Source of the DNA: Bryobacteraceae bacterium
GTDB taxonomy: Bacteria; Acidobacteriota; Terriglobia; Bryobacterales; Bryobacteraceae
Assembly (NCBI GenBank): GCA_025928545.1
Contig: JAICJH010000032.1
Span: 1 to 64,000 of the forward strand
Direction: 5' to 3'
Length of the DNA: 64,000 nucleotides
Below the pieces are notes generated by a model. That model worked only from the letters and a program-made list of their open reading frames with translations, did no database searches and was not told where the DNA came from. A program made the position numbers and the translations under genes. Positions 1,896-57,115 of the stretch are shown one piece after another. Each line of letters begins with the position of its first letter. The stretch's first letter is position 1.

Positions 1896-2486
1896 ATGAC
1901 CAACAGGCGTAACATTCTTGCAGGACTTCTGGGCTGGACCGGATTAAGTGCGGCGGCGGCACAAACACAGTCGGATCCGGAGCCCGAAGCAATGCCCAAC
2001 CGCGGGCTCCAGGTTTTCTTCCAACAGCACGATACCGTTATCGCCTTCAGCCAGATCACCGGCGTCGGCGAGCAGGTTGGAAACGTAATCGGCTCGATTC
2101 AGGGCACCGCGATCACAAATTTTCAGTTCATCCCCGTCTCGCAAACCGCCATCAAGTTCGATAACCGGTGCCTGATAACCGACATTGACGGCGATCAGAT
2201 TCTGTTCCAGGTCCTGGGCACAGGCCAGTTCATCACGCCGCTCACCGACCCCGCCTCACCACTTGGCAACCTGATGTCGATCGGAGGACCCCTGGTGGCG
2301 ACTTACATCGCGCTGAAGGGCTCGGGTAAATATGCCTTTTTGGTGGGCCGCAAGTTCCCGTGCAAGATGGCTGCTACTAACTCGGCCAGCCCCTCCGCGG
2401 GCGTGCTGGGCAACGTCTTCGTTCAGGTCTATTCCGACAACGTCGGCGTTCTCGCGACGGCGATCAGAAGTTATCCCGGCAGATAG
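1896..2486 (+). CDS. secreted hypothetical protein with twin-arginine-like signal
   Basis: 196 residues, not recognised with confidence. The N-terminus MTNRRNILAGLLGW followed by a small-residue stretch (SAAAAQ) reads as an export signal, possibly Tat because of the RRN pair. The mature part is rich in beta-prone, Gly and Thr segments (for example ITDIDGDQILFQVLGTG near residues 90-106), suggesting a small beta barrel or sandwich, loosely reminiscent of allene-oxide-cyclase-like proteins. AAGGACAGG precedes the ATG. It is followed 27 bases later by another secreted protein and then by the porin cassette in the same direction, so an envelope-associated role is likely. Confidence 0.7.
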   Translation: MTNRRNILAGLLGWTGLSAAAAQTQSDPEPEAMPNRGLQVFFQQHDTVIAFSQITGVGEQVGNVIGSIQGTAITNFQFIPVSQTAIKFDNRCLITDIDGDQILFQVLGTGQFITPLTDPASPLGNLMSIGGPLVATYIALKGSGKYAFLVGRKFPCKMAATNSASPSAGVLGNVFVQVYSDNVGVLATAIRSYPGR

Positions 2487-2513: not shown

Positions 2514-3158
2514 ATGAAACTGACTTCCGGTTTTTCGCGCGCAGTAATTGTTCTGGCGGCGGCCGCATCCGGGGCCATCGCTCAAATGGGCCCGATGGCG
2601 CAGTTCTCACTGATTCCATCCGGCGGGCTCTTTACACAGCATCCCGCAATCGGTTCGTGGTTTGGCAAGGCTGTGCAGCTGTGCAAAACCACCAGCGATC
2701 CAAGTTGCTTCAAAGTGGCCCTCCTGATGACTCCCACCGTGAGTTCCGATGGAGTCTTCCTCGGCAACGATAGTCTCGCCCTGGGCGGACCTCCCTTCGG
2801 GCCGCATACCACAGCCCACGGCCGCTGGATCGCGACAAGCTCCACCGGCATAATCGCCGACTACGTCTTCATGTTGCCGGGTTCCACGGCGGCATCCGTG
2901 AGCGCACTGCGATTCCGCTGGAATGCCTCCGTCACCACTTACGACACGATGGTGGGCTACGTGAACATTTTCTTCGGCCCCGAAATCCCTGTGCTGTGGC
3001 AGGATATCAAGCCGCAGGAGAACCCCGCATTGCCAGCCGAGATTGTTCCGCCGCTCACCGCTCCGATCCTTTTCTATACCGATCCGGCTCAGTGCCCAAG
3101 CGGCCCCCCGGCCTGCCCACTGATCTTCAAGTTCACGATTAAGCGGGTTTCGCAATAG
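2514..3158 (+). CDS. secreted hypothetical protein
   Basis: 214 residues with a clear Sec signal (MKLTSGFSRAVIVLAAAASG, then AIAQ, cleavage near residue 24). No family recognised. The mature protein has four cysteines, arranged as CKTTSDPSC and CPSGPPAC pairs that could form disulfides outside the cytoplasm. GAGGAAAC lies just before the ATG. It sits 25 bases upstream of the first FadL-like porin and is probably co-transcribed with it. Unlike the next three genes it has no second copy in the window. Confidence 0.7.
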   Translation: MKLTSGFSRAVIVLAAAASGAIAQMGPMAQFSLIPSGGLFTQHPAIGSWFGKAVQLCKTTSDPSCFKVALLMTPTVSSDGVFLGNDSLALGGPPFGPHTTAHGRWIATSSTGIIADYVFMLPGSTAASVSALRFRWNASVTTYDTMVGYVNIFFGPEIPVLWQDIKPQENPALPAEIVPPLTAPILFYTDPAQCPSGPPACPLIFKFTIKRVSQ

Positions 3159-3183: not shown

Positions 3184-4665
3184 ATGAACGGACAACCGAA
3201 TTGCCTGGCCTGCCTGCGGGTATACAGGGCAGGGTGTCGCCGCGTTGCTATTCTCTCCGCCCTCTCCACCGCCGCCGCAATATCGTGTTTCGGCGCGGCG
3301 TTTTCCGTGTCCGAGTTGGGGGCGCGCGCGACCGGAATGGGCACTGCCTTCATCGCGACGGCCGATGACGGCACTGCCCTGTTTTATAACCCGGCCGGAA
3401 TTGCATTTCAACCCGGACGAAGGATGGAGATGGATGGCCTGGTGGTGGTGGGGCTGTTTCGCTTCTTCCCCTCCTCCACGCCCGAAGGCCAGGTTGTCCC
3501 GGTCAACGGTTATTCGGGATCGATTAAGCCTCACTTTATTCCGATCCCGAGCATGTATGCGACACAGCAGATCAACCCAAAAATGACGTTCGGCTTCGGC
3601 CTCTTCACGCCCTTCGGGCTGGCCGCTAATTTCACAAATTTCAACGACGGCGATCCCGAGCTGACGAAGTTTGTGGGCAGATTTGCAGGCACGCGCGCTC
3701 AGCTCCAGGAGTATTGGTTTCAGCCGACACTCGCATACAAGATCACTCCGAATTCGGCTATCGCCGTGGGACCGGCTCTTGTCCACACCCATCTGGCGAT
3801 TGAACAGAGCATTCTGAATCCATCGGGTGACGGCTTGACCTTCGGAAATGCCGCTGCCTCCACCTTCTTCCCGAATCTCCCGGAAGGTCAGGCGGCGGCT
3901 ATCCTCGCCCGGCTTCTTCCGGCGGGCCGTTCACGCATTGCCGGCACAGCCAATAAGCCGGGTTTTTCCCTGGGCTGGTTGTATAAACATCCGAAAAGCA
4001 GGACTCGGCTCGGATTGATGTTTCGCAGCGCGGTCACCAACCACCTGAGCGGCAAAGCCTCCTTCGCGTTCAATCCTCCGACCCCGATCGAGACTTACCT
4101 GCCTCCGAATTTCCTGGGCAATGCCTTCCCCAACCAGAACATCACCGGCTCGCTGACCACGCCCGCCACTTACGGAATCGGTATTGCGAACTCGAGCTTC
4201 CACAACACGACTTTGGCAGTGGACCTTCGGCTTCAGGATTATCACCGCTTCTCCAGCGTGCCGGTGAATTTTCCGATTAATTCGGGGCAAAGCTCCGATA
4301 TCGCGATCCCGCCGGAACAGCGCCTCTATTTCGATTTCCACAACGCAATCGCTGTGGCCGTGGGCGCCGAAAAGCTGATGAGCCCGACGATGACGGTTCG
4401 GCTGGGGTTCATGTTCGACGAATCGCCCGTGCCCGACAAGAGCGTGGGGCCGCTGTTCCCCGATACGAATCGCGTGAGTTTCACATTCGGCGCCAGCCAG
4501 AAACGCGGCAACAAAGAATACACGTTTTTCTATGACGCCATGAAGTTCATGGACCGGGCTACCAACGTTCCCGCCAACGACACGCTGTATACCAACGGCG
4601 ACTATCGAAACTTCGCGCATCTGTTCGGAATGTCGCTGCGGTTTAATTTTGGCGACCGCTGGTAA
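3184..4665 (+). CDS. OmpP1/FadL-family outer-membrane transporter, copy 1
   Basis: 493 residues. After an N-terminal signal region comes the FadL-family hatch signature (ELGARATGMGTAFIA, then ADDGTALFYNPAGIAF, about residues 44-76), and the rest alternates polar and hydrophobic residues as in a 14-strand barrel, ending in an aromatic residue (FNFGDRW). FadL-type proteins pass hydrophobic substrates such as long-chain fatty acids or aromatic hydrocarbons across the outer membrane; the substrate here is unknown. CAGGAGAG precedes the ATG. It is the first gene of a cassette repeated at 8119-12943, where its paralogue shares long near-identical blocks. Confidence 0.9.
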   Translation: MNGQPNCLACLRVYRAGCRRVAILSALSTAAAISCFGAAFSVSELGARATGMGTAFIATADDGTALFYNPAGIAFQPGRRMEMDGLVVVGLFRFFPSSTPEGQVVPVNGYSGSIKPHFIPIPSMYATQQINPKMTFGFGLFTPFGLAANFTNFNDGDPELTKFVGRFAGTRAQLQEYWFQPTLAYKITPNSAIAVGPALVHTHLAIEQSILNPSGDGLTFGNAAASTFFPNLPEGQAAAILARLLPAGRSRIAGTANKPGFSLGWLYKHPKSRTRLGLMFRSAVTNHLSGKASFAFNPPTPIETYLPPNFLGNAFPNQNITGSLTTPATYGIGIANSSFHNTTLAVDLRLQDYHRFSSVPVNFPINSGQSSDIAIPPEQRLYFDFHNAIAVAVGAEKLMSPTMTVRLGFMFDESPVPDKSVGPLFPDTNRVSFTFGASQKRGNKEYTFFYDAMKFMDRATNVPANDTLYTNGDYRNFAHLFGMSLRFNFGDRW

Positions 4666-4695
4666 GAGGCCAGACAGACAACGGAGAGGATGGTT

Positions 4696-5958
4696 ATGAG
4701 ACTACGATCACTCACGGTTTTCGTCCTGAGCGCAATCTGCTGCGCCGGCCTTCAGGCTCAAACGAAGCGCGGCCTCGACACGACAACTTTTGTCGTTATG
4801 GGCGAGGGACTGGCTGCAGGGATGGCGAATTACGGGCTCAGCGCAACGTACCAGAACTTCAGCTTTCCGGCGCAGGCGGCGGCGCAGATGAAGGCGGCTC
4901 TCGTGCAACCTCTCATCCAGCCGCCGGGCATCGGTGATGTCGTCGGATACCCCGGCCAGGAGGTCAGGCTTCACACCTATCCGCAGGGATCGGTTCGGCA
5001 GTTCTATTACACGGGCACATCGAAGACTTCTTCACCTCCCATCTTTGTGCAGAATCTTTCGGTTCCCGGCCTGACGCTGGCGGACAGCGTATCGCTGCGC
5101 CCCGTTGCCCCCATCGCACAGCGCGATATGAAACAAACTGTGGTCAACCTGATTCTCGGCTTCCCTCAGTTATTTCTCGACCGAGTGCCGCTATGGAGCC
5201 AGTTCGAGTATGCCAAGGGCCTTGTGCCTTCGGTAGTGCTGATCGAACTTGGGTATTACGAAGCGCTCGATGCGGCGGTAAATCTGGACCCTGCGCGGCT
5301 GCCGAATCCGGCGACATTCGGCGCGACCTACGGCTCAGTTGTGCAGGGCCTGCGCGCAATGCAGGCGCAGGTGATTGTCACCACGATTCCGAATCCGCTT
5401 GATACGGCGTACTTCAGTTCGCCGGAGACCGCCGCGGCGATCACCGCAACCAACCCATTCGTGATCACAGGCGGTTATAACGTGACGCCGCAGGATTACC
5501 TGACGCGCAATGCCCTGATGACGATCTCGAATCAGTTTACGGCCGGCGCCATTGCGCCTTTGCCAGCCGGCTCTGTGATGAAGGCCGCTACCGCATCGGC
5601 GCTGACGGCAGGTATCAATGCCCTGAATGCCCAGATTGTGACCGCGGCGAAGGCGAATGGAGCCGTAATTTACGATCTGGCGGGATTCCTTCACACTGTG
5701 AAACTTTCAGGCACTACCGCCGGTACTTCCACGATTACGGCAGATTATCTGGGCGGCTTCTACTCTCTGGATGCCGTCTATCCGGGCCCTACGGGCAATG
5801 CCCTGATCGCGAACAATCTGCTGTCGTTCCTGAATTCGACTTACAGCAAGACGTATCCGCTGATTCCCGTTTCCGCGGTTTCGTCCAACGATCCGATCTC
5901 GACTTATAAGAAACCAAGAGGCCAGCTTCATACCGCCAGTACGCTCGGCATCCAGTGA
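4696..5958 (+). CDS. secreted SGNH-fold protein with degenerate active site, copy 1
   Basis: 420 residues with a Sec signal ending near LQAQ. The layout matches secreted SGNH/GDSL hydrolases: block I FVVMGEGLAAGMANYG, block II LSVPGLTLADS, block III LIELGYYEALDAA, block V SLDAVYPGPTGNALIAN. In catalytically competent relatives these read GDSL, GNND and DGVHP. Here the nucleophile Ser is Gly, the block III Asn is Tyr and the catalytic His is Tyr, so hydrolase activity is unlikely and a binding role is inferred. The ATG at 4696 is preferred over 4690 because GGAGAGG lies directly against 4690. It is flanked by the porin and the 680-residue protein. Confidence 0.85.
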   Translation: MRLRSLTVFVLSAICCAGLQAQTKRGLDTTTFVVMGEGLAAGMANYGLSATYQNFSFPAQAAAQMKAALVQPLIQPPGIGDVVGYPGQEVRLHTYPQGSVRQFYYTGTSKTSSPPIFVQNLSVPGLTLADSVSLRPVAPIAQRDMKQTVVNLILGFPQLFLDRVPLWSQFEYAKGLVPSVVLIELGYYEALDAAVNLDPARLPNPATFGATYGSVVQGLRAMQAQVIVTTIPNPLDTAYFSSPETAAAITATNPFVITGGYNVTPQDYLTRNALMTISNQFTAGAIAPLPAGSVMKAATASALTAGINALNAQIVTAAKANGAVIYDLAGFLHTVKLSGTTAGTSTITADYLGGFYSLDAVYPGPTGNALIANNLLSFLNSTYSKTYPLIPVSAVSSNDPISTYKKPRGQLHTASTLGIQ

Positions 5959-5984
5959 GACGTCTTCTTTCGATGGTGACATCC

Positions 5985-7997
5985 ATGAGACTAACTTTCG
6001 CAACTTCCTTACTACTGCTCACCGTCCCGGCCGGCGGATTGATGGCCGATAGCCCTCTGCTGCTGTTCGATCCTCTGGCGAAGCCGCTCGTACTTCCTCC
6101 CGGCAACGTCGAGACGCTGCCGTTGAACAAGACAGGCAGCTTTTTCGGGGATGCAATTCGCGCCGTGGACTGCGCCGACTACGTTCCGGTGGCCTTTCCC
6201 GGCGACACCCCGGCGCAGGAAACGCGGTTCGGCATCTGCGGGAATCAGCTCTTTGGCGGCGTAGTGATGACGGACAGTCATCTTTCGGGAAACATCAATA
6301 TCCGTTTTTTCCCGACGAGCCCAACGACGGCTCATTTCGTGGTGTCCCAGGGAGTCCTGCAGGGCGATGACGGCGTCCTGTCGGCGCCGCTTGGGTACAG
6401 CATGCCCGTGAAACGCAATCTGATTTCCGATGGCATGACTCTTTCTTCCGGGGACCTGGATCTGACTACCGGTTATGCCATTAACATCCAGTGGAACGTT
6501 TATTTTTCCAACACCGCGCTGCTGGCCCTTGCCAACGTGAATCCAAAGCTGACGGCTCCGCTCATCACGTTTCCGGGCACGCGGGGACATGCGTGGGCAA
6601 GTTTCAAACAACGCCCCGATGGTCTGCTGGATTTCTATTTCCGCGGGAGCACTTTCCTGGCTCTGGGCGGCGACGTAGAGGGCGATCCGGTCCGCTTTCC
6701 CCTGCCCTATTGCAGCAGCGATGGAAACTGCGCCAGCGTGCTTGCCCGAGGCACAAGCCTGCATCCACACCTCTACCTCAACACCGCGACGTCTTTGGGA
6801 TACACGCCCTGCGCTCCAAATTGCCCCGACCTGCCGATTAACAAGACTCAGGTTTTTACCGTCAACGCCCGCTACACCAATTACGGAGACGATTTCGATT
6901 TGCGTATCCCACAGCAGGGTGGGCTTGGACCGGGCCGATCGGAACTCCAGGGCCGCTTCGAAGTTCAGTTCGGCGCTCCCGCCGGCGGTACGCTGCCCTT
7001 CAAGATCTCCGCGCTCCCTCCCGAAGGGCTGTTTGCGGACCCGCCCAACAATCCGCTCCTCGGCTCCGGCTTTCGCGGCTTCCTGATGGGGCCGAACCAG
7101 AAACTGCATTTCCCGAACTACGTTTACGACCAGCACAAGCTTTACTTCGTCGACGAGCCTTACAATTTTGCGCAGGGCGCGATCGATCTTGCCAGCGGCC
7201 AGATCGTGGGCGAGTTCGAGTATCCGATGTATATCGATCAATCGATCATCGAGGCACTGATTCCGGACAATAACGGACGGGTATCGACCGATCCGTTCTT
7301 TTTGGTGGCAGAGGCGCCGTGGCAGGATCCCGGCGACACTAACTACGCGTTTTTCGAGAAAGAACCGAATGGGCAAACGATGTTCCGGGCCAACACCTTC
7401 CATCATCGGTCGTTCGAGAGCTATTGTTACCCACAACCTTCCTTATTGCCCGGAATCTGCTGGACCGCGCCCGCGGGGGGCAATCTGAACATTTTCGGCA
7501 AGCTGCAGGCGGCGCATCTGCCCGATCCGGCCAATCCCGGCGCGGCGATACTCAGGGACAACCGGACCTTCGTATCTTCGTTGGGAGATACCTTCAGCTA
7601 CAACTTCTCGATGGCCTGCAATCCAGCGGGCCAGCCGTTCTCGTTTGTTTACCAAAACAACAACTCCGGGCCCTCCGGCGGAACATTCACGATGACTCAT
7701 ATTGCTTCCGTGAGTTGCACGAACTCAAAGGTTTCGACTGCATCGCCGGGCAATTACGATCAAATCGCGATCACTGGTTTCGGCACGTGGAGCAAAGATC
7801 CTGCCAACTCGTTGCCGAGATTCATGGCATCGTCCATTTCAGTGGACCCGGCAAATCCGTACGGCATGATCATGGTGTTCCAGAAATATCCCGGCGAAGC
7901 GCAGACGATGGCGGGAGCGTTGATTCTTCCCGGGGATGAAATCGACGTCAATCTCTCGACAGCTGAGAATAAGCCTGCCGACAAGCCGCAGCCCTAA
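5985..7997 (+). CDS. large secreted protein of unknown family, copy 1
   Basis: About 670 residues with a Sec signal (MRLTFATSLLLLTVPAGG). No known domain recognised. The mature protein is beta-rich and has conserved blocks shared with the 10898-12943 paralogue: PLVLPPGN near the N-terminus, FPGTRGHAWASF, QRPDGLLDFYFRGSTFL, YPMYIDQSIIEALIPDNNGR, HHRSFESYCYP and a GFGTWSKDP segment near the C-terminus. Several cysteines could form disulfides. A GTG at 5955 would overlap the previous stop by four bases (GTGA) and add ten residues; 5985 is chosen because its signal peptide aligns with the paralogue start. Its position suggests a partner of the porin and the SGNH-like protein. Confidence 0.8.
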   Translation: MRLTFATSLLLLTVPAGGLMADSPLLLFDPLAKPLVLPPGNVETLPLNKTGSFFGDAIRAVDCADYVPVAFPGDTPAQETRFGICGNQLFGGVVMTDSHLSGNINIRFFPTSPTTAHFVVSQGVLQGDDGVLSAPLGYSMPVKRNLISDGMTLSSGDLDLTTGYAINIQWNVYFSNTALLALANVNPKLTAPLITFPGTRGHAWASFKQRPDGLLDFYFRGSTFLALGGDVEGDPVRFPLPYCSSDGNCASVLARGTSLHPHLYLNTATSLGYTPCAPNCPDLPINKTQVFTVNARYTNYGDDFDLRIPQQGGLGPGRSELQGRFEVQFGAPAGGTLPFKISALPPEGLFADPPNNPLLGSGFRGFLMGPNQKLHFPNYVYDQHKLYFVDEPYNFAQGAIDLASGQIVGEFEYPMYIDQSIIEALIPDNNGRVSTDPFFLVAEAPWQDPGDTNYAFFEKEPNGQTMFRANTFHHRSFESYCYPQPSLLPGICWTAPAGGNLNIFGKLQAAHLPDPANPGAAILRDNRTFVSSLGDTFSYNFSMACNPAGQPFSFVYQNNNSGPSGGTFTMTHIASVSCTNSKVSTASPGNYDQIAITGFGTWSKDPANSLPRFMASSISVDPANPYGMIMVFQKYPGEAQTMAGALILPGDEIDVNLSTAENKPADKPQP

Positions 7998-8118
7998 AGC
8001 ACGAGCTGCGCGGCTGGCGGCAAGAGGGCCTTGGCTGCGCACCCGTTTAGAATCCTGCGTGCTTTGGCGGTGTACACTGAACAGTTTTACGGATACTTTA
8101 CGGAGGATTCCGAAAGGA

Positions 8119-9576
8119 ATGACAGGTCGGTTACTCAAGAAGTTCACGCGGTTGTGTCTGTTCAGCTTTCTTGCCACTGAGTTTTGTTTCGGCTCCGCTT
8201 TTTCCATCAGCGAGCTCGGGGCGCGCGCTACGGGAATGGGGACGGCTTTCATCGCCGTAGCGGATGATGGCTCCGCCCTCTTCTACAATCCCGCGGGTAT
8301 TGCATTCCAGCCCGGGACGCACCTGGAGATGGATAATGCGGTGGTGGTGGGTCTGTTTCGGTTCACTCCTTCGGCGACTCCGCCCGGACAGGTGGTGCCT
8401 CCGAATGGCTACTCGGAGTCCATCCGGCCGCATTTCCTTCCGCTCGCATTCATGTATGCGACCAAACAGCTTTCGCCCAAAATGACCTTCGGCTTCGGCA
8501 TCTTCACACCGTTCGGCCTGGCCGCGAATTCGACCAACTTTAACGATGGCGATCCGAATCTGACGAAGTTCGTTTCCAGGTTTGCAGGTACGCGCGTTCG
8601 GCTGGAATCTTATTGGTTTCAGCCCACCATCGCCTATAAGCTCAGAGACAATCTAAGCATTGCGATCGGGCCAACGTTTGTCCACACGCACCTTTTCCTG
8701 GAACAGAGTTTTTTGAACCCCCTGGGGAACGATGACGCTCTCAAGTTCGGACGTACCGCAGCGCCGGTGGTTCTGCCCGGCGTGCCGGTCAACCTGGCCG
8801 CGCCGATCATTGCGCGGTTGTTACCTGAAGGCCGCTCCCGCGTGGCGGGAACCTCGAATGCCTTCGCCATTTCGGCCGGTCTTCTCTGGAAGAACGCTCT
8901 GCCGAAGACGGATATCGGCCTGATGTACCGAAGTTCGGTAGTCAACCACCTCTCCGGAAAGGCATCGTTCGCTTTCGGAAACCAGCCCTACGCACTCGAA
9001 CAATACGTCGGCCCCAGCTTCCTCCCCAATGCATTTCCGAATCAGGAGGTCACCAGCTCTTTACCCACGCCCGCCACTTACGGAATTGGTATTGCGAATT
9101 CAGGTTTGCACGGTATCCGCCTGTCGGCCGATGTGAGAATGCAGGATTACAAGAAATTCAAGTTCATCTCGCTGAATTTCCCTATCAACGAGAACAGCAC
9201 GACGCTTCAGAACATCGCGCTTCCGGCTGTAAAGATTCTGAACTTCAACTTCAGGGAATCGTGGAATTTTGCTCTGGGCGCGGAGAAAAAGCTCAACGAC
9301 GCGACCGCAATTCGCGTTGGATACATGTTCGACATGACGCCGGTGCCGTCGCAGAGCGTGGGACCGCTGTTTCCCGATGCCAACCGGCATAGCTTCACGG
9401 CGGGGGCATCGCGCAAATCCGGCAACAAAGAGTTTACTTTTTTCTACGAGGCTATGAAATTCGTTGACCGCCAGACGGACGTTCCGGCGAACAACTATCA
9501 ATGGACGAACGGCGATTATCACAATTTTGCCCATGTCGCGGGGCTGGCGCTGCGGTTCGACATGAAACCGCACTAG
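8119..9576 (+). CDS. OmpP1/FadL-family outer-membrane transporter, copy 2
   Basis: 485 residues, paralogue of the 3184-4665 protein. A short signal region ending near FCFGSAF is followed by the FadL hatch motif (SELGARATGMGTAFIA, then ADDGSALFYNPAGIAF). The barrel region carries the same landmarks as copy 1: MTFGFGIFTPFGLAAN, KFVSRFAGTR, NHLSGKASFAF, GNKEFTFFYEAMKF. The ATG at 8119 has AAAGGA directly before it and GGAGG 12 bases upstream; frames starting upstream run into the preceding gene and lack a signal peptide. A 121-base gap separates it from copy 1, so it may have its own promoter. Confidence 0.9.
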   Translation: MTGRLLKKFTRLCLFSFLATEFCFGSAFSISELGARATGMGTAFIAVADDGSALFYNPAGIAFQPGTHLEMDNAVVVGLFRFTPSATPPGQVVPPNGYSESIRPHFLPLAFMYATKQLSPKMTFGFGIFTPFGLAANSTNFNDGDPNLTKFVSRFAGTRVRLESYWFQPTIAYKLRDNLSIAIGPTFVHTHLFLEQSFLNPLGNDDALKFGRTAAPVVLPGVPVNLAAPIIARLLPEGRSRVAGTSNAFAISAGLLWKNALPKTDIGLMYRSSVVNHLSGKASFAFGNQPYALEQYVGPSFLPNAFPNQEVTSSLPTPATYGIGIANSGLHGIRLSADVRMQDYKKFKFISLNFPINENSTTLQNIALPAVKILNFNFRESWNFALGAEKKLNDATAIRVGYMFDMTPVPSQSVGPLFPDANRHSFTAGASRKSGNKEFTFFYEAMKFVDRQTDVPANNYQWTNGDYHNFAHVAGLALRFDMKPH

Positions 9577-9599
9577 ATTAACGACGGGATGACGACAGG

Positions 9600-10901
9600 A
9601 TGACAAGCACGAAGAAAAATATCGTTTTCAGCCTGCCTTTATTGGTTTTTTCCATGGCCTGGCAGGCGCACTCGCAGACGCTGGACACAACCACGTTTGT
9701 GTTTATGGGCGAAGGCCTGACGGCCGGCATGGCGAACTACGGTCTGAGCAGTGCGATGCAGAATCATGATTTCGCGGTTCTGATGGCGGCGCAGATGAAC
9801 GCCGGTATTGAACAACCGCTGATACAGCCGCCCGGCATCGGCGATGTGATCGGATATCCCGGACAGGAAGTGCAGGTGCAGAAGTACCCGCAGGGTTCGG
9901 TCCGTCAAATGTATCTGCCCACGGATAAAACCAAGGCCCCGATTCAGACTCCTCCGCTGTTCGTAACCAACGTTTCGGTACCCGGACTGACGCTGAACGA
10001 CAGCATCACCATGAAACCGGTCGCGCCGGTCGTACAGCGGGCCAACATGAAGCAGACGACGTTCAATATGATTCTCGCCTTCCCTCAGCTGATCCTGAAT
10101 AACGTGCGGTTGTGGACGCAACTGGAGTACGCCGAGGCGCTGAATCCAACCGCCGTGCTGGTCGAGCTTGGTTATTATGAAGCCCTGAATGCGGCTGTTG
10201 CGGGCGATCCGTCGCTCATCCCCAACCCAACGGCGTTCGGGAAAAACTACAATACGGTAATTGCCGGTCTGCGCGGAGTGCAGGCGCAGGTGATCGTCAC
10301 AACGATACCCAATCCGCTGGATACAGCCTATTTCAATTCGCCCACGGCCGCTGCCGCCATTGTCCAATCCACGCCTTCCGCCCTCGCCACGAGCTTCAAC
10401 GTGGGGCCGCAGGATTATGTCACGCGCAATGGTCTCGAGGCGATGGGGTATGCGTCGATGACAGGCGGAGTTCAGGCCGCCCAACCGCTGCCGGCGGGAT
10501 CTGTTTTGACGGCCGCCACCGCAGCTGCCATTACGAGCGGCGTCAATGCGCTCAACGCACAGATTGTCAGCGCCGCCAAAGCCAATGGAGCAGTGGTGTA
10601 CGACCTGAATGCGTTTCTTCATAAGATCAAGATCTCCGGCGCCAGCGCAGGTTCGGGAACGGTCAATGGCGATTACCTGGGCGGCTTCTATTCCCTCGAT
10701 GGCGTGTATCCGGGGGCAACCGGACATGCCCTGATCGCGAATGACATGCTGAGTTTTCTGAATCAGACGTATCACCGCACATTCACGACGGTCGATGTGG
10801 CTGCGATAGCCGCAACCGATCCCCTCGGCCAGAATCTGAAGCCGAAACCCTCTTCAACCGGCACCATGGAACGAATTGAGCTCAGGGGGGCGCGCCGATG
10901 A
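9600..10901 (+). CDS. secreted SGNH-fold protein with degenerate active site, copy 2
   Basis: 433 residues with a Sec signal (cleavage near AHSQ). It has the same degenerate SGNH blocks as copy 1: MGEGLTAGMANYG in place of GDSL, VELGYYEALNAA in place of GNND, and SLDGVYPGATGHALIAND in place of DGVHP. Because the Ser, Asn and His replacements are identical in both copies, they predate the duplication and have been kept. Its 3' end overlaps the next start by four bases. It is about a dozen residues longer than copy 1, mainly at the C-terminus. Confidence 0.85.
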   Translation: MTSTKKNIVFSLPLLVFSMAWQAHSQTLDTTTFVFMGEGLTAGMANYGLSSAMQNHDFAVLMAAQMNAGIEQPLIQPPGIGDVIGYPGQEVQVQKYPQGSVRQMYLPTDKTKAPIQTPPLFVTNVSVPGLTLNDSITMKPVAPVVQRANMKQTTFNMILAFPQLILNNVRLWTQLEYAEALNPTAVLVELGYYEALNAAVAGDPSLIPNPTAFGKNYNTVIAGLRGVQAQVIVTTIPNPLDTAYFNSPTAAAAIVQSTPSALATSFNVGPQDYVTRNGLEAMGYASMTGGVQAAQPLPAGSVLTAATAAAITSGVNALNAQIVSAAKANGAVVYDLNAFLHKIKISGASAGSGTVNGDYLGGFYSLDGVYPGATGHALIANDMLSFLNQTYHRTFTTVDVAAIAATDPLGQNLKPKPSSTGTMERIELRGARR

Positions 10902-12943
10902 ACAGACTCGCCGTTCTCACCACTTGTCTCACGGTTCTGGCGGCATTTGCGAACGCCGATCAGCCCACGTATATTTTCGATCCCCTGCCGAAACCGCTCG
11001 TACTGCCGCCCGGGAACATCGAGACGCTCCCGATTAATCACGACGGAAGTTTCTACGGCGATCAAATCCGTATTGTCGACTGCACTCCCGACCTGACGCC
11101 GGCCTTTTCGGGCGAAACGGCTGCCGATGAAGTGAAATATGGCACCTGCGGAAATCAGCTCTTCGGCGGTCCCGCGATGTTCGACAGCCATCTGCGCGGC
11201 AACATCACGATTCAGTTCACGCCAACCGGGCCGACCACCGCTCATTTCACCGTCTCGCAGCACGTCCTCACTGGTGACGACGGCACTGTGACGGCGCCGC
11301 TGGGCTACAATTTTCCGATTGTCAACAGCACCGTATCGGACGTCCTTCAGATCTCCTCCGGCGACGTGGATCTCACAACCGGCTACGCCAACCCCAACAC
11401 GCTCGTGTGGAACGCAGCGTTTTTGAACAGTGGCATGCAGGCCATAGCTCTGGCGAATCCAAAACTCATCCCGCCTGTCATAACGTTTCCGGGTGCGCGA
11501 GGCATTGCCTGGGCGAGCTTTGCCCAGCGGCCCGACGGCCTGCTGGATTTCTTTTTCCGGGGCAGCACCTTCCTCCCGCTCGGCGGCGAGATCGGCGGCG
11601 ATCCTGTGCACTTCCCCCTCCCCTACTGCAACCCGAAAATTCAGTGCACCAGTATTCTGGCGCGCGGCACTTCCCTTCATCCTCATCTTCAACTCGATAC
11701 GAGGGACTCGCTCGGGTATACGCCTTGTGCGCCGAACTGCCCGGATATCCCGACGAACAAAGTGGAAGTCTTCACCGTCCATGCAAGGTACACTGCGTTC
11801 GGCGACGATTTCGATCTGCACATTCCGGAACTCGGCGGCCTCGGGCCGGGCCGTTCTGAACTACAGGGGCGTGTGGCGATTCAGTTCGGACCGAAATCCG
11901 GCAACGGAGTTCCCTTCCAGATCTCTGTCATGCCGCCCGAGGGTTTGTTCGCGGAACCGCCCAACAGCCCTTTGCTCGGCCCCGGATTTCGCGGGGTAAT
12001 CATGGGGACAAATCAACAGCTTCACTTCCCCAATTACCTATACAACCAGCACAAAGTTTATTTCGCCGATGAGGTGCACAATCGCGCCAGCGGCATGATC
12101 GACCTTGCCAGCGGCCAGATCGTGGGCGAGTTTATTTATCCTATGTATATCGATCAGTCGATCATTGAACAGTTGATTCCGGATAACAACGGCCGGGTGA
12201 CCCTGGAACCGTTCTTCCTCGTCGGCATGCGCGCCCCTCAGGATCCGGAGGATCTGAACTATGCGATGTTCGAGAAGGAGCCGAATGGCGAGACGATGCT
12301 CCGGATGAATCTCTTCCACCATCGCTCATTCGAAACCTACTGTTATCCGTTCCCCTCTTTCATTCCCGGCCAGTGCTGGACGGCAAAGGCGGGCAGCGGA
12401 AGCAACCTGAATATCTTCGGCAAAATTCAGGCGGCGCATCTGACCGATCCCGGCAATCCCGGCAACGCGCTCCTCAAAGACAACCGCACTTTTGTCTCGT
12501 CCGCCGGTGACACGTTTAGCTACAATTTTTCGGTGGCCTGCAATCCCGTGGGCCAGCCCTTTTCTTTCACGTATTCAAACGACAACTCGGGCGCTTCCGG
12601 CGGAACGTTTAAGCTGGAGCACCTTGTCTCCGTGAGCTGCACCAACTCAAAGGTTTCCACCGCGGCTACCGGTAACTACGACCAGATTGCGATCACGGGT
12701 TTCGGCACATGGAGTAAAGATCCCGTGGTGGGCCCGACAGTTGCCGCCCTACCGACTCAGCCACGGTTCATGACCGCCTCCATTTCGGTTGACCCCGCGA
12801 ATCCGTACGCCGCCATCATCGTTTTCAATAACTACCCCGGTGAGAACCTGAAGCTGCCTGGAGGGTTCGTGCTGACAGGCGATGACGTGGATGTCAATCT
12901 TTCCACGGCGGAAAACAAGCCGGCGTCCAAGCCAGTGCCTTAG
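10898..12943 (+). CDS. large secreted protein of unknown family, copy 2
   Basis: 681 residues, paralogue of the protein at 5985-7997. The signal peptide is MNRLAVLTTCLTVLAAFANA. Its ATG overlaps the upstream stop (ATGA) and CAGGGGGG lies about 10 bases upstream. Shared blocks include PLVLPPGNIETLP, QRPDGLLDFFFRGSTFL, HIPELGGLGPGRSELQGR, YPMYIDQSIIEQLIPDNNGR and SCTNSKVSTA. Near the C-terminus it has a short insertion before PRFMTASISVDPANPYA relative to copy 1. No enzyme motif or membrane segment beyond the signal was found; function unknown. Confidence 0.8.
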   Translation: MNRLAVLTTCLTVLAAFANADQPTYIFDPLPKPLVLPPGNIETLPINHDGSFYGDQIRIVDCTPDLTPAFSGETAADEVKYGTCGNQLFGGPAMFDSHLRGNITIQFTPTGPTTAHFTVSQHVLTGDDGTVTAPLGYNFPIVNSTVSDVLQISSGDVDLTTGYANPNTLVWNAAFLNSGMQAIALANPKLIPPVITFPGARGIAWASFAQRPDGLLDFFFRGSTFLPLGGEIGGDPVHFPLPYCNPKIQCTSILARGTSLHPHLQLDTRDSLGYTPCAPNCPDIPTNKVEVFTVHARYTAFGDDFDLHIPELGGLGPGRSELQGRVAIQFGPKSGNGVPFQISVMPPEGLFAEPPNSPLLGPGFRGVIMGTNQQLHFPNYLYNQHKVYFADEVHNRASGMIDLASGQIVGEFIYPMYIDQSIIEQLIPDNNGRVTLEPFFLVGMRAPQDPEDLNYAMFEKEPNGETMLRMNLFHHRSFETYCYPFPSFIPGQCWTAKAGSGSNLNIFGKIQAAHLTDPGNPGNALLKDNRTFVSSAGDTFSYNFSVACNPVGQPFSFTYSNDNSGASGGTFKLEHLVSVSCTNSKVSTAATGNYDQIAITGFGTWSKDPVVGPTVAALPTQPRFMTASISVDPANPYAAIIVFNNYPGENLKLPGGFVLTGDDVDVNLSTAENKPASKPVP

Positions 12944-13041: not shown

Positions 13042-13953
13042 ATGGACGATCTGGCCCGATTAGTCATCTTTTGTGGAAAGGGCGGAGTCGGTAAGACTAC
13101 GTTGAGTCTTGCGCTGGGGTTACATCGTGCCATACAGGGTCACAAAGTTCTCGTGATCAGTTCTCATCCCCTGCCGGAACTTGCAGTGGGAGTTTCGCTC
13201 GAACGCCTTGCTTCGCGATTTCCGGAGGCAGCCCCCAACCTGCTCGTCCAGTACATCGAACCGAAGGATCTGATTGCTGAACTGGTACTGAAGTATTTCC
13301 CGATGGAAACGATGGCGCGGAAAATACTCAACAGCTCAATTTTCACGAACCTGATTGAGATTGCACCTGGTCTCAAGGAATTCTTCTTCCTCGGCAAACT
13401 TCAGGAACTGGCGGAAAGCCGGAACTTCAGTTCAACGGGAGTCACCCAGGAATACGACTATCTCATTTGGGATGCGCCTGCCAGCGGTCACTTTCTGAGC
13501 ACACTGCGAGCCGCTAAAACATTTGAGGTTTTTCTCACAGGCCCTCTATCGGACGCGGGAGCGAAGCTGCATCGCTTTTTTTCGAATGGGAGAAATATTC
13601 AGCTTTTCCCCGTCACTCCACTGGAGGAAATGGCTATCGCGGAGACGCTCGAAACCGTTGAGGCATTGAAAACCGATTTCGACGTCGCCTGCTCGGCTGC
13701 CCTGATTAACTTTGCGTCGCCCATGTGCTCCGCCAGCGACGCCGAAATTGCCGCACTGGAGGCGGTGAAAACTTCCTCGCCCGCGATGAGCTTCGCCATT
13801 GAACGCGGAAGTATGGAGCGGGAACGCCTTGCGGAACTGCGGACGACACTTCCGGTGCCGCAGGTCCTGGTTCCGAGAATCACTCAGTGGTCGGACGATC
13901 TGGATCTGCTGGAGAAAATCGGCAACAGCATGGATCTTTCGAGGTTTGCATGA
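13042..13953 (+). CDS. ArsA/GET3-family ATPase, first of a pair
   Basis: 303 residues. The deviant Walker A motif CGKGGVGKTT (residues 11-20) keeps the signature lysine K13 and catalytic K18, as in ArsA, GET3/TRC40 and MinD-type SIMIBI ATPases. YDYLIWDAPASGHFLSTL resembles the switch region that follows the second Walker motif in this family. No metalloid-transport gene (arsB, arsC, arsR) lies nearby, so arsenite export is not supported. There is no obvious Shine-Dalgarno before the ATG. It overlaps the next gene by four bases, and the two probably work as a heteromeric pair. The 98-base gap from the envelope cassette leaves open whether they share a transcript. Confidence 0.85.
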   Translation: MDDLARLVIFCGKGGVGKTTLSLALGLHRAIQGHKVLVISSHPLPELAVGVSLERLASRFPEAAPNLLVQYIEPKDLIAELVLKYFPMETMARKILNSSIFTNLIEIAPGLKEFFFLGKLQELAESRNFSSTGVTQEYDYLIWDAPASGHFLSTLRAAKTFEVFLTGPLSDAGAKLHRFFSNGRNIQLFPVTPLEEMAIAETLETVEALKTDFDVACSAALINFASPMCSASDAEIAALEAVKTSSPAMSFAIERGSMERERLAELRTTLPVPQVLVPRITQWSDDLDLLEKIGNSMDLSRFA

Positions 13954-14987
13954 AGATCACTGTTTGTGTGGGCACGGGCGGGGTCGGCAAGACGTCAGTG
14001 GCAGCGGCGATGGCGCTGAAAGAAGCGCAGGCCGGAGAGAAGTGCCTCGTCCTGACGACAGATCCCGCACTGCGCCTGCGCACCGCGCTGGGCCTGAAAG
14101 ACGGCTTGCTGGAGCAGCGCGTACCTTTGTCCGACACGAAAGGTGAGCTTTGGGCCGCGCTGATGGACGTGAACGCAACTCTCGACGACGCGGTGAGATT
14201 TCACGCCAAAACCTCCGATCAGGAAAAGATCCTGAACCATCCGATTTACCGGTCGATCGCCAGTTCGATGGCCGGGATGCAGGAGCTCATGTCCATTGAG
14301 CGAATCGATCAATTAAGGCGGCGCGGGTTCGACAACATCGTGATCGATACCGCGCCTTCCCGCCATGCGCTCGATACATTCGACAAGCCGGTATTGTTCG
14401 CGGATTTTTCCGATTCCGGAAAAGTCCGGTTCGTGAGCCGGACCTACAAGTTCGCCGAAGCCCTCGGCCTCACCACCATCGGGCGCAGCGCGCTCGAAGT
14501 TTACAGCCGCGCCGAATCGATTCTGGGCGCGGGCATGGTGCGAAGCATTCTGGACTTCTACTCGCTTTTCCATCCCGTCGCCGAGGGATATTCGGATCGG
14601 GCGCGAAACACCGTCTCCATGCTGCGCGATCCGGCCGTCACCGAGTTTCGCGTGGTGACGATTCCGGGAAAAGCCGTACGCGATGCGGGCTTTTTCCTGG
14701 ATGCCCTCAAGCAAAGGCGCTTCCCGACGGGCATGATTTGTGTCAACCGCACATGGCTTCACGACACGCCGGACTCCGCGCCCGAGGGGCTGCCGACCAG
14801 ACTTCTGGATTGGTATCGCGCGGTCAAAAACTCGCATTTGCTGGCGATTCGCGAACTAAATGAGAAATTCGCGGGGGATGTGCGGGAGATTCGCGTCCTG
14901 CGGGAACTCGACCGGGACGTGGAAGGTGTGCAGTCGCTTGTGTATCTCGCGGAACAACTCGGTATGCCGATCCGAGCCACAGCATAA
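13950..14987 (+). CDS. ArsA/GET3-like ATPase, second of a pair, altered signature lysine
   Basis: 345 residues beginning MKITVCVGTGGVGKTS. The P-loop keeps K14, but the signature lysine of the deviant Walker A motif is threonine (T9), unlike the upstream partner. LTTDPALRLRTALGL matches the Switch-I-like region of ArsA-related proteins, and NIVIDTAPSRHALDTFDKP is the Walker-B/switch II region. The ATG overlaps the previous stop (ATGA), so a longer frame starting at 13887 is rejected. Related adjacent ArsA-like pairs with a G[ST]GGVGKT loop occur in other phyla, notably actinobacteria, without a settled function. A heterodimer with the 13042 protein is inferred. Confidence 0.85.
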   Translation: MKITVCVGTGGVGKTSVAAAMALKEAQAGEKCLVLTTDPALRLRTALGLKDGLLEQRVPLSDTKGELWAALMDVNATLDDAVRFHAKTSDQEKILNHPIYRSIASSMAGMQELMSIERIDQLRRRGFDNIVIDTAPSRHALDTFDKPVLFADFSDSGKVRFVSRTYKFAEALGLTTIGRSALEVYSRAESILGAGMVRSILDFYSLFHPVAEGYSDRARNTVSMLRDPAVTEFRVVTIPGKAVRDAGFFLDALKQRRFPTGMICVNRTWLHDTPDSAPEGLPTRLLDWYRAVKNSHLLAIRELNEKFAGDVREIRVLRELDRDVEGVQSLVYLAEQLGMPIRATA

Positions 14988-51633: not shown

Positions 51634-54600
51634 TTACCGAAACTGGCGTTTGTAGAAGAAGTTCACACTGAAGATACCGTTCTGGTCCCGCGTTGCGATT
51701 GCCGACCATTTGGGATCGAACGCCCATTCCACCTTGATGATCTGCCCGTTCGGATCGTCCAGCGCGGAAGTGTACGTAAACGTCATGTTGTGCGTAATAT
51801 GCTGCTGTAGGGTCAGGCGCGCTGTTGGTAGCGAGGACCCGCTCTGGAAACTCGGATCGATCTTGAGCTGTGACACGCCGAACACCCGCTGGAGCCGCCC
51901 GGCAACCGGATTCGCCACCGCCTGGCCGAGTGCCGCCGATTCTCCCATCTGCTGCAAGGAAGACTGAGGAACCTGCGGCTGATTCGCCAGCAGTGTTGGA
52001 TCCGACGTGGGCCCCTTGCCTGTAGCCAGCAGACTGACGATCTCCTGGAATCTCAGCGGCGGATTGGAAGTATAACTCAGCTTCATGTTGTAGATGGGCC
52101 CGGTGACTCGCAACGTCACGTCAATTCCCTGCGTCTGCGTTTCGAGACTGACATCCAGCACGGGGTCGATTTGCAGCGGATTAAAAAACCCTATCGTTCC
52201 AGCCTGAACCGTAAATGAGGAGCCGAGAAAAACCAGTTTGCCTTCATTGATAGTGACCCGCCCCAGGGCAGCTGGCTTGGCCGCGGTCCCCTGCACGTGA
52301 ATGTCGGCCGTGGCTGAAATACCCTGCGCGACATCCGCCTGCACCGCAAGTCCGGAAGCCGTCCGGAGCCTGATATCCAGTCGCATGTTCTCGAGCAGCG
52401 GCGAAGGGGCGGTTTCGGATTGAACGGAGGGCTCGGCCTGGGAAAGGATCGAGGCCATATCGGTTTGCGGATTGTAATTTACCTGCCCGATAACTGCCGT
52501 TCCGGAGAGGGTACTCCTTCGCGAAGTTCCGCTCAACTGGAGGTCCGCGCCTGCTACAACGCTGACGCCTGGTTGCAACCGCGCCCGAACGCGTGTGGCT
52601 TTCACCTGAATCCCGAAACGTGACAGATCGGCATATTCGGCAAAGCCCGTAACAGTGATCTTCCCTCCCCCGGATTCACCGCTCAGATTCTGGATCGTCG
52701 CCGTCTTACCGCTCAGAATCACCAGGCCGTTGGCGTTGGAAATGCCGTTGGGAAGACCCGCGTAGTTGAAGGTGGCGTTTTGCAGAGCAAACCGCCCGTT
52801 GATCTGGGGTTGTGCCTGGGTCCCGCGAACCGTGGCTGTGAGATTCAGGTCCCCCGACGAATAGATGTCGCTGTCGAAATCCGGCAGGATTCCGAGATTC
52901 AGTTTTGCATTCAGATTCAGGTTCAATGTCCCGGCAGGTAAAGTCGCTCCGCCGGTTGCCTGTATATCCACTCCGGAGCCTGCCAGATGCGCATTCTGAA
53001 TTTGCGCGGAACCGCGGTCGAGGGTCAAAGCGATCGGTCCCTGATTGGATATCGAAACCGGTTTCGTGTCGCCCGGCCGCGCCTTGGCCGTGATGTTCAG
53101 GCGGCTCACCTGGAGGCTTGCTTTCAGTTGATCGGTGCGCAGTATCGGCCCGTTCACGGTGATTTGCCCGTCCGTTGCCGCCTCCACCTGGGACTGTCCT
53201 TCCTGAGCGATGCCGGCAAGTTTCGCGACTCGCGAGTAGAGCAGGTTGTTGAACGTGAGTTGCGCGTTCACCGGATAACCATCCACCAGTTGCGCGCTGC
53301 CCTTACCGTGAATCGCGGCATCCGCCAGATCCGAATCCAGCGCGAATTCCACTCTGTCGCCCGATGTCGTATTCGCGGTGAGCTTCAGATTGCCGAAATT
53401 CTCGCCCTGGTCCCGCACCTGACTGGCGGCGACGTTGACATTGAGATCGCGCAGGGTGATCCGCGGCTGACTGTTGCCTGTTCCGTTAACAACGCTGCCT
53501 TCACCGTGCGCCTCCAGTTGAACAGCCCCCGCAAGCCCAAGCCGCCGCGACTGGACGTTGTGGATGCGGGCAAGATCGAGCCGGCTGCTCGTCACGTTGA
53601 ACTTCGCGCTGCCTGAAGTCAGGCTACCCGCGGGATGGTCGTAATGCGCAGTCAGTTCGATTTGTGAATTCCCAGCCGTGATCTGAAATTCAGGCACGTC
53701 AACCGCGCGGGCCAGCCAGGCGGCACGAACGTGCAGACGGTCGATGGGTTCGTCGTAGAGGACCGCGCGTGTCAGATCCAGACTGCCCTCACCGTGCGGA
53801 TCGCTCACCGTGCCTGTCAGACGGAGGTTGCCCGCCAGATTGCCACGGGCCGGTATGTCGGCATTGCCGGCCACGGCGAGGGTCTTGTCGATTGGCAGAT
53901 TGGCGATGACGAGATCGGCCGTCGTGGGATAGTCATGGACCAGCTGCGTATTGCCGTTGGCGTGAATTGAGGAGCCGGCAAAGTTCGACGTCGCAGTGTA
54001 GTTGACCGTTTGCCCAGTGGTGCGTGCCGATGCGTCCAGATCGCCATACGGCTGTCCATTCCACTTCACAGCGCGAGCCGTGGCACTCCCGTTGACGCTG
54101 GTCAGGATGAACTCATCGGTCTTGAGTTCGCCGGCGACATCCAGATTTGTCGAAACGGTACCCGAAACATTCTGCCGAAAGCGGCCGACAGTCGAGGCAA
54201 GGTCGATCTGGTTGCTCACCACTTTGGCGTGAATCTGGCCGGTTGAGAAACTGTCCTCAGGGTGCCGGAATTCTCCTGAGAGATCCAGCCTCCCTGAGCC
54301 GGACTGCACAAACGATGCGGGAATCGTCACCAGCCGATCCGTCAGATTGGCCTGCACCTGCGCCTTGTCGAAAGACAGTCCGTTGATTGCGCCGGTCGCT
54401 GCGTTCAGGGTGACGGCGCCCACCGGGTTCCCGGCGGTTCCATCGATGTGGGCCATGGCCGTCACCGCACCGGAATAATCGGCGCTGGGTTGTCCGGCCA
54501 GCGCTGCCAGATCCGCCAGGTCGCCGTCCGTAATCGAAAGGTCCGCTTTCACCGGCTCCCTTGGTAACAGCTTCCAGTCCGCCAGGCCAACCGAGCCTGC

Positions 54601-57113: not shown

Positions 57114-57115
57114 AG

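What the first reader, a model, noticed from the sequence alone, without database searches (positions are those of the whole stretch)
3184..12943. Tandemly duplicated three-gene envelope cassette
A FadL-like porin, a degenerate SGNH secreted protein and a ~680-residue secreted protein occur twice in tandem in the same order. All six frames are intact and diverged along their length, so selection has kept both sets. A porin plus two exported partners suggests a dedicated system for acquiring or sensing a hydrophobic molecule. The two copies could differ in ligand.
Basis: partly seen in the sequence, partly recalled or inferred. Interest (0 to 1): 0.72.

Follow-up and report, generated by a model that had tools for sequence, protein, structure and literature searches.

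The report
FadL channel with dead-hydrolase partner cassette
Some soil acidobacteria keep a gene cassette that pairs a channel for oily molecules with a hydrolase look-alike that has lost its active site and a large secreted protein of an unnamed family; this window carries two old, separately maintained copies, probably used to take up and hand on some oily molecule.

Summary
Window 3184-12943 carries FadL, SGNH and a ~680-aa secreted protein ('SEC') twice in the same order, frames open; paralogues are 63, 59 and 68% identical, with low dN and saturated dS. The copies are old: each pairs with a different relative's cassette in all three gene trees. The cassette is real: at 23 unfused SEC loci in 15 genomes SGNH lies directly upstream 23 times and FadL is linked 22 times, once by inference across a contig break (and window). 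In the order this FadL clade occurs in 16 of 250 genomes, among them all 15 with SEC. The SGNH is a pseudoenzyme: Ser lost in 31 of 32, Asn and His in 32 of 32, whereas 17 of 17 solitary relatives examined keep Ser and His. SEC has no significant Pfam, NCBIfam or PDB match and is internally duplicated. Other acidobacterial classes carry SGNH-SEC fused, at least five of nine without room for a signal peptide. Best reading: FadL uptake of a hydrophobic molecule with a non-catalytic SGNH-SEC carrier. Ligand, direction and binding are untested.

The parts
1896..2486 (+). X1: 196-aa exported protein with a twin-arginine (RRxxLAG) type N-terminus; no Pfam/NCBIfam name; relatives beside FadL-SGNH-SEC cassettes elsewhere
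   Evidence: nothing above a cut-off; X1 at L053 twice, L057, L060, L061, L062, L063; alignment A8; Arg-Arg and LAG invariant in 8 of 8
2514..3158 (+). X2: 214-aa exported protein; relatives beside other cassettes
   Evidence: L060 E 2e-84; L053 E 5e-6; hydrophobic N-terminus; an L063 gene clusters with the L053 one
3184..4665 (+). FadL1, outer-membrane hydrophobic-compound channel family (set 1)
   Evidence: PF03349 E 8e-38; 74.8% to the L012 FadL; profile A10 of cassette FadLs matches solved FadL/TodX/CymD chains
4690..5958 (+). SGNH1, exported SGNH/GDSL-type protein without catalytic residues (Ser>Gly40, Asn>Tyr189, His>Tyr364)
5955..7997 (+). SEC1, large exported protein of an unnamed family (start probably 5973 or 5985)
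8119..9576 (+). FadL2 (set 2); ORF open back to 7936 but ATG 8119 precedes the signal-like stretch
   Evidence: PF03349 E 1.2e-37; 74.3% to the L011 set B FadL
9600..10901 (+). SGNH2, SGNH/GDSL-type protein without catalytic residues (Ser>Gly39, Asn>Tyr192, His>Tyr370)
10898..12943 (+). SEC2; about residues 30-250 and 250-480 are two copies of one domain, then a different C-terminal region; overlaps SGNH2 by 4 bases
   Evidence: (profile self-comparison: probability 98.4, E 6e-15)

Best explanation
Each trio is one outer-membrane uptake unit for a bulky hydrophobic molecule. FadL lets the molecule through the outer membrane. SGNH and SEC are exported together (overlapping or adjacent genes; fused into one chain in other classes) and act as a non-catalytic carrier: the SGNH protein descends from GDSL hydrolases but has lost the nucleophile, the oxyanion Asn and the base, so it would hold a lipid-like ligand without cutting it, and the two-domain SEC would cap it or dock it to the channel. 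In the related 'GMC' cassettes the ligand would be passed to a GMC oxidoreductase that oxidises an alcohol group; in the window's variant the small exported proteins X1/X2 take that downstream place. The two window copies are old paralogues kept for different or differently regulated ligands. Shown here: gene content, conservation, catalytic loss, FadL family, SEC duplication, SGNH-SEC fusion. Inferred: export (from N-termini), binding, complex formation, uptake direction, ligand class.
For: Co-inheritance: SGNH directly upstream of SEC at 23 of 23 unfused loci, FadL linked at 22 of 23, GMC plus a small partner at 11 of 23, cupin-like at 11 of 23 (two cut by contig ends), X1 at 7 of 23 (plus the window); FadL clade (E 1e-30 or better) in 16 of 250 genomes of the order, containing all 15 SEC genomes, the sixteenth (G611) cut by a contig end after FadL-GMC. 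SGNH-SEC fusion in 10 ORFs of 9 genomes outside the window's class, a common sign of a physical or functional pair. Catalytic loss confined to the cassette clade in the sample: Ser in 1 of 32, Asn 0 of 32, His 0 of 32, against Ser 17 of 17 and His 17 of 17 in the solitary relatives examined; one branch (100/99) parts the two groups. In a studied SGNH lipase, Ala at Ser, Asn or His each abolished activity (PMC10779480, abstract seen). FadL channels TodX and CymD pass hydrophobic substrates by lateral diffusion (PMC7728783, abstract seen). Next to two fused genes (L134, L135) stand another FadL (PF03349 E 5.6e-23 in L134; the L135 one is its relative, E 3.7e-94) and a GMC oxidoreductase. Low dN between copies.
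Against: No ligand, binding or complex was tested. Seven of the 9 fused loci have no FadL in the stretch read, and at least five of nine fused N-termini leave no room for a signal peptide, so SGNH-SEC can occur without the channel and probably inside the cell. One fused SGNH keeps Ser (GESL, G116), though not Asn or His. In one genome FadL is on a different contig from SGNH-SEC (G405). Twelve of the 23 cassettes, both of the window's among them, have no GMC enzyme in the stretch read. The genomes are related (6 of 84 genera), so the counts are not independent. Fold models were too poor to use (mean pLDDT 36 and 33).
Confidence: 0.45

Rival explanations
1. Export rather than uptake: SGNH-SEC carries a self-made lipid, isoprenoid or wax-like molecule to the surface and FadL places it in the outer leaflet; X1, the cupin-like protein and GMC modify it on the way.
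For: Carotenoid-oxygenase (RPE65, L135), Trp-halogenase-like (L134) and GMC genes near fused genes; the own genome has an island with a patatin and ABC1-type kinases and, by eye, a CrtI-like FAD enzyme; FadL direction is not readable from sequence.
Against: FadL members known to me (recalled) are importers; among the neighbour clusters that I could name, no biosynthetic gene recurs at the split cassettes (not every cluster was annotated).
Confidence: 0.2
2. SGNH-SEC is primarily a component of intracellular hydrophobic bodies (lipid-droplet or polyester-granule like); the exported FadL-linked version feeds them or is a redeployment.
For: Patatins neighbour the fused gene at six of nine fused loci (Pfam in L028, L133, L134, L136; by profile in L135 and, more distantly, L132). 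Small proteins with a shared FSWAMSLFGxQQ-type N-terminus lie nearby, and that N-terminus is itself fused to SGNH-SEC in G386 and, by eye, G839. Two unnamed families (D334, D335) and ABC1-type kinases neighbour both split and fused loci, and D335 lies about 8 kb upstream of FadL of the own genome's third cassette. Synechocystis has an operon with a phasin-like and a patatin-domain protein linked to PHB granules (PMC7203880, passages seen).
Against: The phasin likeness is by eye and the link between the small proteins of the two groups is weak (profile E about 1e-5). The window's cassette has none of these neighbours among the 48 genes called in the window. Patatins lie next to fused loci only. 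In the tree the fused forms lie inside the split ones, not at the base, though with weak support and midpoint rooting.
Confidence: 0.2
3. SGNH has a changed, not lost, activity (for example one that uses the conserved Tyr residues) and SEC is its anchoring or processing subunit; FadL supplies the substrate.
For: The replacements are not random: Tyr in 28 of 32 at the His column, Tyr or Phe in 29 of 32 at the Asn column, Gly in 30 of 32 at the Ser column; low dN.
Against: No nucleophile or base at the known sites; I know of no SGNH-fold enzyme with this set of residues (recall).
Confidence: 0.12
4. The trio is only a chance neighbourhood of envelope genes duplicated once, without a joint function.
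For: Gene order varies between genomes (FadL after SEC in G226 and G494, the cupin-like gene after SEC in G429), and one genome has FadL elsewhere (G405).
Against: 23 of 23 and 22 of 23 linkage, fusion, and matching genome distributions.
Confidence: 0.03

Closest known systems
FadL/OmpP1/TodX family outer-membrane channels (PF03349; solved E. coli-type FadL 1t16, CymD 6z34, TodX 3brz)
   Same: Both window porins belong to the family, and the profile of 24 cassette FadLs matches solved FadL, CymD, TodX and TbuX chains.
   Different: In the order searched these FadLs (E 1e-30 or better) occur only in genomes that also hold SEC or a contig-cut cassette; known FadLs as I recall them work without fixed exported partners.
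SGNH/GDSL hydrolases (PF13472, PF00657)
   Same: 20 of 28 members match PF13472 at E 0.5 or better (best 3.1e-6); block II Gly is kept in 24 of 32 and Asp in 22 of 32; solitary relatives in the same order keep Ser and His.
   Different: Ser, Asn and His lost; none is known to me as part of a FadL cassette.
FilD-type FadL of the Fil system (NF050080)
   Same: FadL2 has a partial NCBIfam match (E 1.6e-10, 39.9 bits); as recalled, a FadL there also sits with large exported proteins.
   Different: Far below the cut-off of 970 bits; SEC and SGNH match no Fil model.
GMC oxidoreductases (PF00732/PF05199; nearest NCBIfam models choline dehydrogenase and MftG)
   Same: The oxidoreductase in 11 of 23 cassettes is of this type (PF00732 E 1.7e-31 for the own C49 one; the others by profile).
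   Different: The two scanned are below every NCBIfam cut-off, so no substrate can be read off; absent from the window's cassettes.
Synechocystis slr0058-slr0061 operon (phasin-like plus patatin-domain protein, PHB granules)
   Same: Patatin plus a small phasin-like protein also lie beside the fused form (PMC7203880 passages).
   Different: No FadL, SGNH or SEC is mentioned in the passages seen; homology of the small proteins was not tested.

Membership tests
FadL/OmpP1/TodX channel family | Full-length match to PF03349 above its cut-off | tested here: met
   130.4 and 129.9 bits against a cut-off of 29.7, residues 30-489 and 19-480
FadL/OmpP1/TodX channel family | Signal-like N-terminus, mature start at Ala-Phe and the NPA motif | tested here: met
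   N-terminal hydrophobic stretch by a simple scale, no signal predictor; A27 F28 and N57 P58 A59 invariant in 24 of 24 cassette FadLs; that these are the family's marks is recalled
FadL/OmpP1/TodX channel family | Lateral gate and measured transport of a hydrophobic substrate | not testable with these tools
   no structure and no experiment
SGNH/GDSL hydrolases | Sequence match above the Pfam cut-off | tested here: not met
   15.8 and 14.8 bits against 32.9 for the window pair
SGNH/GDSL hydrolases | Catalytic Ser of block I | tested here: not met
   Gly in both window proteins; Ser in 1 of 32 cassette or fused proteins
SGNH/GDSL hydrolases | Oxyanion Asn of block III | tested here: not met
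   0 of 32; in the solitary relatives Asn 12 and Ser 5 of 17
SGNH/GDSL hydrolases | Asp-x-x-His of block V | tested here: not met
   Asp in 22 of 32, His in 0 of 32; 17 of 17 for both in the solitary relatives
SGNH/GDSL hydrolases | Common ancestry with active-type members | tested here: met
   alignable with 17 Ser- and His-bearing relatives that profile A7 finds at E 8e-81 to 3e-29
Any named family for SEC | Match to a Pfam, NCBIfam or PDB sequence family | tested here: not met
   26 members: best Pfam E 0.011 in one member, none in NCBIfam at E 0.01, none in PDB sequences at E 1 by profile
Type IX secretion PorV family | Match to NF033709/NF033710 above cut-off | tested here: not met
   38.6 and 49.2 bits against 90 (NF033709), 17.2 and 16.9 against 250 (NF033710)

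The most novel reading that the evidence does not exclude
SGNH-SEC is a new kind of hydrophobic-cargo module that exists in two places of the cell: exported with a FadL channel, as in this window, and fused without a signal peptide inside the cell, where it belongs to an undescribed bacterial lipid-body system with patatins, ABC1-type kinases, phasin-like small proteins and two unnamed families. The FadL trios would be the supply line of that system, built on a GDSL hydrolase that lost its chemistry once and became a carrier.
Probability: 0.2. Interest if true: 0.78.

Novelty: new variant of a known kind. Interest (0 to 1): 0.58.

Why it matters
FadL channels are usually treated as stand-alone pores, and how a hydrophobic molecule crosses the periplasm after the pore is poorly known (recalled). 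A FadL clade inherited with two fixed exported partners, one of them a former hydrolase without catalytic residues, gives a concrete candidate for a periplasmic carrier that can be expressed and tested. Two protein families without a Pfam name (SEC, X1) would gain a first function. The twin occurrence, exported with FadL and fused inside the cell beside patatins, may link outer-membrane uptake to storage of lipids.

Tried and rejected
Fold prediction: SEC2 and SGNH2 with five-row alignments of window, L011 and L012 proteins gave mean pLDDT 33 and 36; I ran no fold search on them. I used only rows that the tool's description allows, so the many relatives fetched by other tools could not deepen the alignments.

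Chance neighbourhood: rejected by linkage and fusion. Recent duplication: rejected by trees. Relaxed selection: not supported, dN far below saturated dS and open frames throughout. Exact omega values are not trusted because dS is saturated.

ArsA/Get3-like pair (13042-14987) and aldehyde dehydrogenase (127-1704) as cassette members: no match at E 1e-4 in 19 other cassette stretches, so left out. Type IX secretion (PorV) and Fil system: below cut-offs. CtpM chemoreceptor match of SGNH2 (E 7.1e-6, 25 of 900 bits, 1 of 28 members): discarded as probable low complexity.

The cassette outside the phylum: SEC had no match in 72,556 plasmid records. SGNH had three plasmid matches; the Deinococcus radiophilus and Gemmatirosa ones keep Ser and His by eye, the D. 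proteolyticus one was not read; no FadL or SEC lies in the stretches read. Other phyla could not be centred on, so the range outside Acidobacteriota is unknown. The genome-contig scan found only two near relatives.

Literature, open-access library only: the searches FadL + SGNH hydrolase + outer membrane + complex (17), FadL + SGNH + Bacteroidetes (40) and a five-term Acidobacteria search listed nothing; GMC oxidoreductase/FadL (69), FadL in Acidobacteria (76), FadL + GDSL (78) and ABC1-patatin-phasin (97) listed papers, none on this cassette as judged from titles and abstract starts. Searches were read as listings.

The iterated 'PHASIN' profile drifted into SGNH and SEC through fused proteins and its list is not used; the 'ABC1' list there also took in ordinary protein kinases (L013, L029) and is used only where Pfam or very high scores support it; E-values of the iterated D334/D335 profiles are flattered by iteration. 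The labels SU3 (gluconate-2-dehydrogenase subunit 3-like), CrtI-like and phasin-like are from recall or by eye; Pfam gave no name for SU3, D334, D335, S93 or the phasin-like protein and NCBIfam none for SU3.

Full report
WHAT IS THERE. The window is contig C10, bases 1-64000, of a 6.7 Mb assembly (171 contigs, 95.1% complete, 5.6% contaminated). Its near relatives in genome contigs are titled uncultured Acidobacteriia MAGs. On the + strand lie X1 1896-2486, X2 2514-3158, FadL1 3184-4665, SGNH1 4690-5958, SEC1 5955-7997, FadL2 8119-9576, SGNH2 9600-10901 and SEC2 10898-12943. The frames are intact. Gaps are short (25-27 bases between X1, X2 and FadL1, 121 between the sets), and promoter- or terminator-like sites are not above chance (11 terminator-like against 11.8 expected, 3 promoter-like against 4.5). 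FadL matches PF03349; SGNH only grazes PF13472 below its cut-off; SEC, X1 and X2 match nothing of weight.

THE TWO COPIES. BLASTP identity is 62.7, 59.2 and 67.7% for FadL, SGNH and SEC. Between copies dN is 0.33, 0.35 and 0.25 while synonymous differences are saturated (pS 0.66-0.74). Trees of the three genes agree: window set 1 pairs with the cassette on the L012 contig, window set 2 with set B of L011 (starred support for set 1 in SGNH and SEC and for set 2 in FadL and SGNH; 89/94 and 81/81 in the other two). So the duplication is older than the split of these lineages. A third, more distant cassette lies at C49 of the same genome (SEC 41% identical).

CONSERVATION. SEC alone gave 4 of 297 genomes in the phylum, own included; its profile gave 6 of 396 and 15 of 250 in the order, own included. 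In the stretches fetched around these plus the window there are 23 unfused SEC loci in 15 genomes. Two are partial: L068 at a contig end, and G226, where the two halves of SEC end two contigs (L015, L016) whose 70-odd shared residues differ at two positions, so that I count one locus by inference. SGNH is directly upstream of SEC on the same strand in 23 of 23. FadL is linked in 22 of 23: 21 on one contig, G226 across the break. A GMC oxidoreductase with a small partner gene is in 11, a cupin-like gene in 11 (two cut by contig ends), X1 in 7 (plus the window). The exception for FadL is G405, where it sits on another contig. A FadL profile at E 1e-30 finds 16 of 250 genomes in the order: the same 15, and G611, where FadL is followed by a GMC gene cut by the contig end. 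G515 is among the 15 only through the long SEC variant described next. The genomes are related (6 of 84 genera), so these counts are not independent events.

A SIDE BRANCH. Five loci have FadL, SGNH and a longer partner (832-843 aa as called). It carries a SEC-like N-terminal part (E 1e-4 to 2e-10), then kelch-like repeats (by eye; weak matches to mutarotase models in the one member scanned) and, in that member, the TIGR03437 Solibacter C-terminal domain.

THE SGNH IS A PSEUDOENZYME. In an alignment of 32 cassette or fused proteins, 17 solitary relatives and one Deinococcus outgroup, the Ser column reads Gly 30, Ser 1, Glu 1 in the cassette group and Ser 17 of 17 in the solitary group; block III Asn 0 of 32 against Asn 12 and Ser 5 of 17; Asp 22 of 32 against 17 of 17; His 0 of 32 against 17 of 17. 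The solitary set is 17 of the 34 weaker rows (17 genomes, one stretch each, picked before looking). No SEC or other cassette gene, and no FadL by a broad profile, lies in the 3.5-15 kb read around them. A tree parts the two groups by one branch (100/99), which fits a single loss of catalysis as the cassette arose. Ala at the Ser, Asn or His of a Streptomyces SGNH lipase abolishes activity (PMC10779480, abstract).

SEC. Of twenty-six members none has a Pfam match better than E 0.011, an NCBIfam match at E 0.01 or, by profile, a PDB sequence at E 1. Profile self-comparison shows that the first ~230 residues repeat in the next ~230 (probability 98.4, E 6e-15, 19% identity) and that the C-terminal third does not match either.

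THE FUSED FORM. Outside the window's class SGNH and SEC form one ORF of about 1,010-1,165 codons: G116, G245, G386 and G368, two in G687, and one each in G671, G842, G819 and G839. In two classes searched that is 4 of 149 and 6 of 147 genomes with SEC (one of the six, G823, is marginal at E 7e-4 and not counted as fused). In five of nine N-termini inspected (G116, G245, G687, G842, G819) the SGNH part starts within about eight residues of the start, leaving no room for a signal peptide; G386 and G839 have an LFG-type leader instead; G671 has a weakly hydrophobic leader that might be a signal, and the starts of G368 and of the second G687 gene are uncertain. Patatins neighbour the fused gene at six of nine loci: L028, L133, L134 and L136 by Pfam, L135 and, more distantly, L132 by profile. 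A FadL (PF03349 E 5.6e-23) and a GMC oxidoreductase neighbour it in L134, with the same arrangement in L135. The FadL searches found none at the other seven fused loci.

A WIDER ISLAND. Clustering of neighbours shows two unnamed families (D335: 8 proteins; D334: 11; iterated profiles) beside both split and fused loci, ABC1-type kinases (PF03109 in L053 and twice in L133; high-scoring relatives in L059, L060 and L061) and a small protein whose N-terminus is shared, weakly, by both groups (profile E about 1e-5). An AHSA1-type gene lies within about 3 kb downstream of SEC at six X-type loci (Pfam on the L053 one). In the own genome D335 lies about 8 kb upstream of the C49 FadL, and C44 holds a patatin, D335, two ABC1-type genes and, by eye, a CrtI-like gene. 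None of the 48 genes called in the window belongs to these neighbour families.

HOW IT MOST LIKELY WORKS. The FadL family passes hydrophobic molecules, with lateral diffusion reported for TodX and CymD (PMC7728783, abstract). A partner that descends from GDSL hydrolases but has lost the catalytic groups is best read as a binder, and its fixed adjacency and fusion to SEC say that the two act as one unit. GMC enzymes inside 11 of 23 cassettes suggest that the cargo can carry an alcohol group. I therefore read each trio as uptake channel plus exported carrier. Steps shown: family, co-inheritance, catalytic loss, fusion. Steps inferred: export, binding, direction and ligand. Sensing and a ligand difference between the two copies have no evidence either way.

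NOVELTY. Seven literature searches found no paper on such a cassette (open-access library only, listings judged by title and abstract start). The channel is known in kind; the fixed pseudo-SGNH plus SEC partnership is, as far as these searches go, undescribed.

CHECK.

Noticed in passing
window 13042-14987: Two adjacent ArsA/Get3-type ATPase genes, the second closest to mycobacterial BagB (E 3.8e-60, below cut-off); they follow set 2 on the same strand but have no match in 19 other cassette stretches.
   Followed up: partly
G494:C114 about 35800-36003 (L059:5675-6241): A separate, opposite-strand ORF of 188 aa that matches only the C-terminal part of SEC (E 2.7e-13), beside a full cassette: perhaps a free-standing C-terminal domain or a remnant.
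   Followed up: no
L016:4673-7189, L069, L100, L101, L102: A long SEC variant with a SEC-like N-terminus, kelch-like repeats and (in the one scanned) the Solibacter C-terminal domain, behind FadL and a pseudo-SGNH whose motif reads GGGL, GGGI or GGGA (5 of 5).
   Followed up: partly
L148 (own contig C44:74000-93000): An island with a CrtI-like FAD enzyme (by eye), patatin, D335, a small S93-type protein, two ABC1-type kinases and a phasin-like small protein (by eye), without FadL or SGNH-SEC among the genes called.
   Followed up: partly
L134, L135: Fused SGNH-SEC near FadL and GMC oxidoreductase in both, a Trp-halogenase-like protein (Pfam in L134) and in L135 a carotenoid-oxygenase (RPE65) gene.
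   Followed up: partly
L149:4386-6734 and 10171-12540, L150:3261-5792: Unnamed proteins of 782, 789 and 843 aa, each near a D335 gene and preceded by a thioredoxin-like gene (by eye), on two contigs of the own genome.
   Followed up: no
window 51634-60133: By eye, a TamB-like 1,612-aa protein, a 214-aa protein and a 1,005-aa BamA/TamA-like protein in a row on the minus strand; not searched.
   Followed up: no
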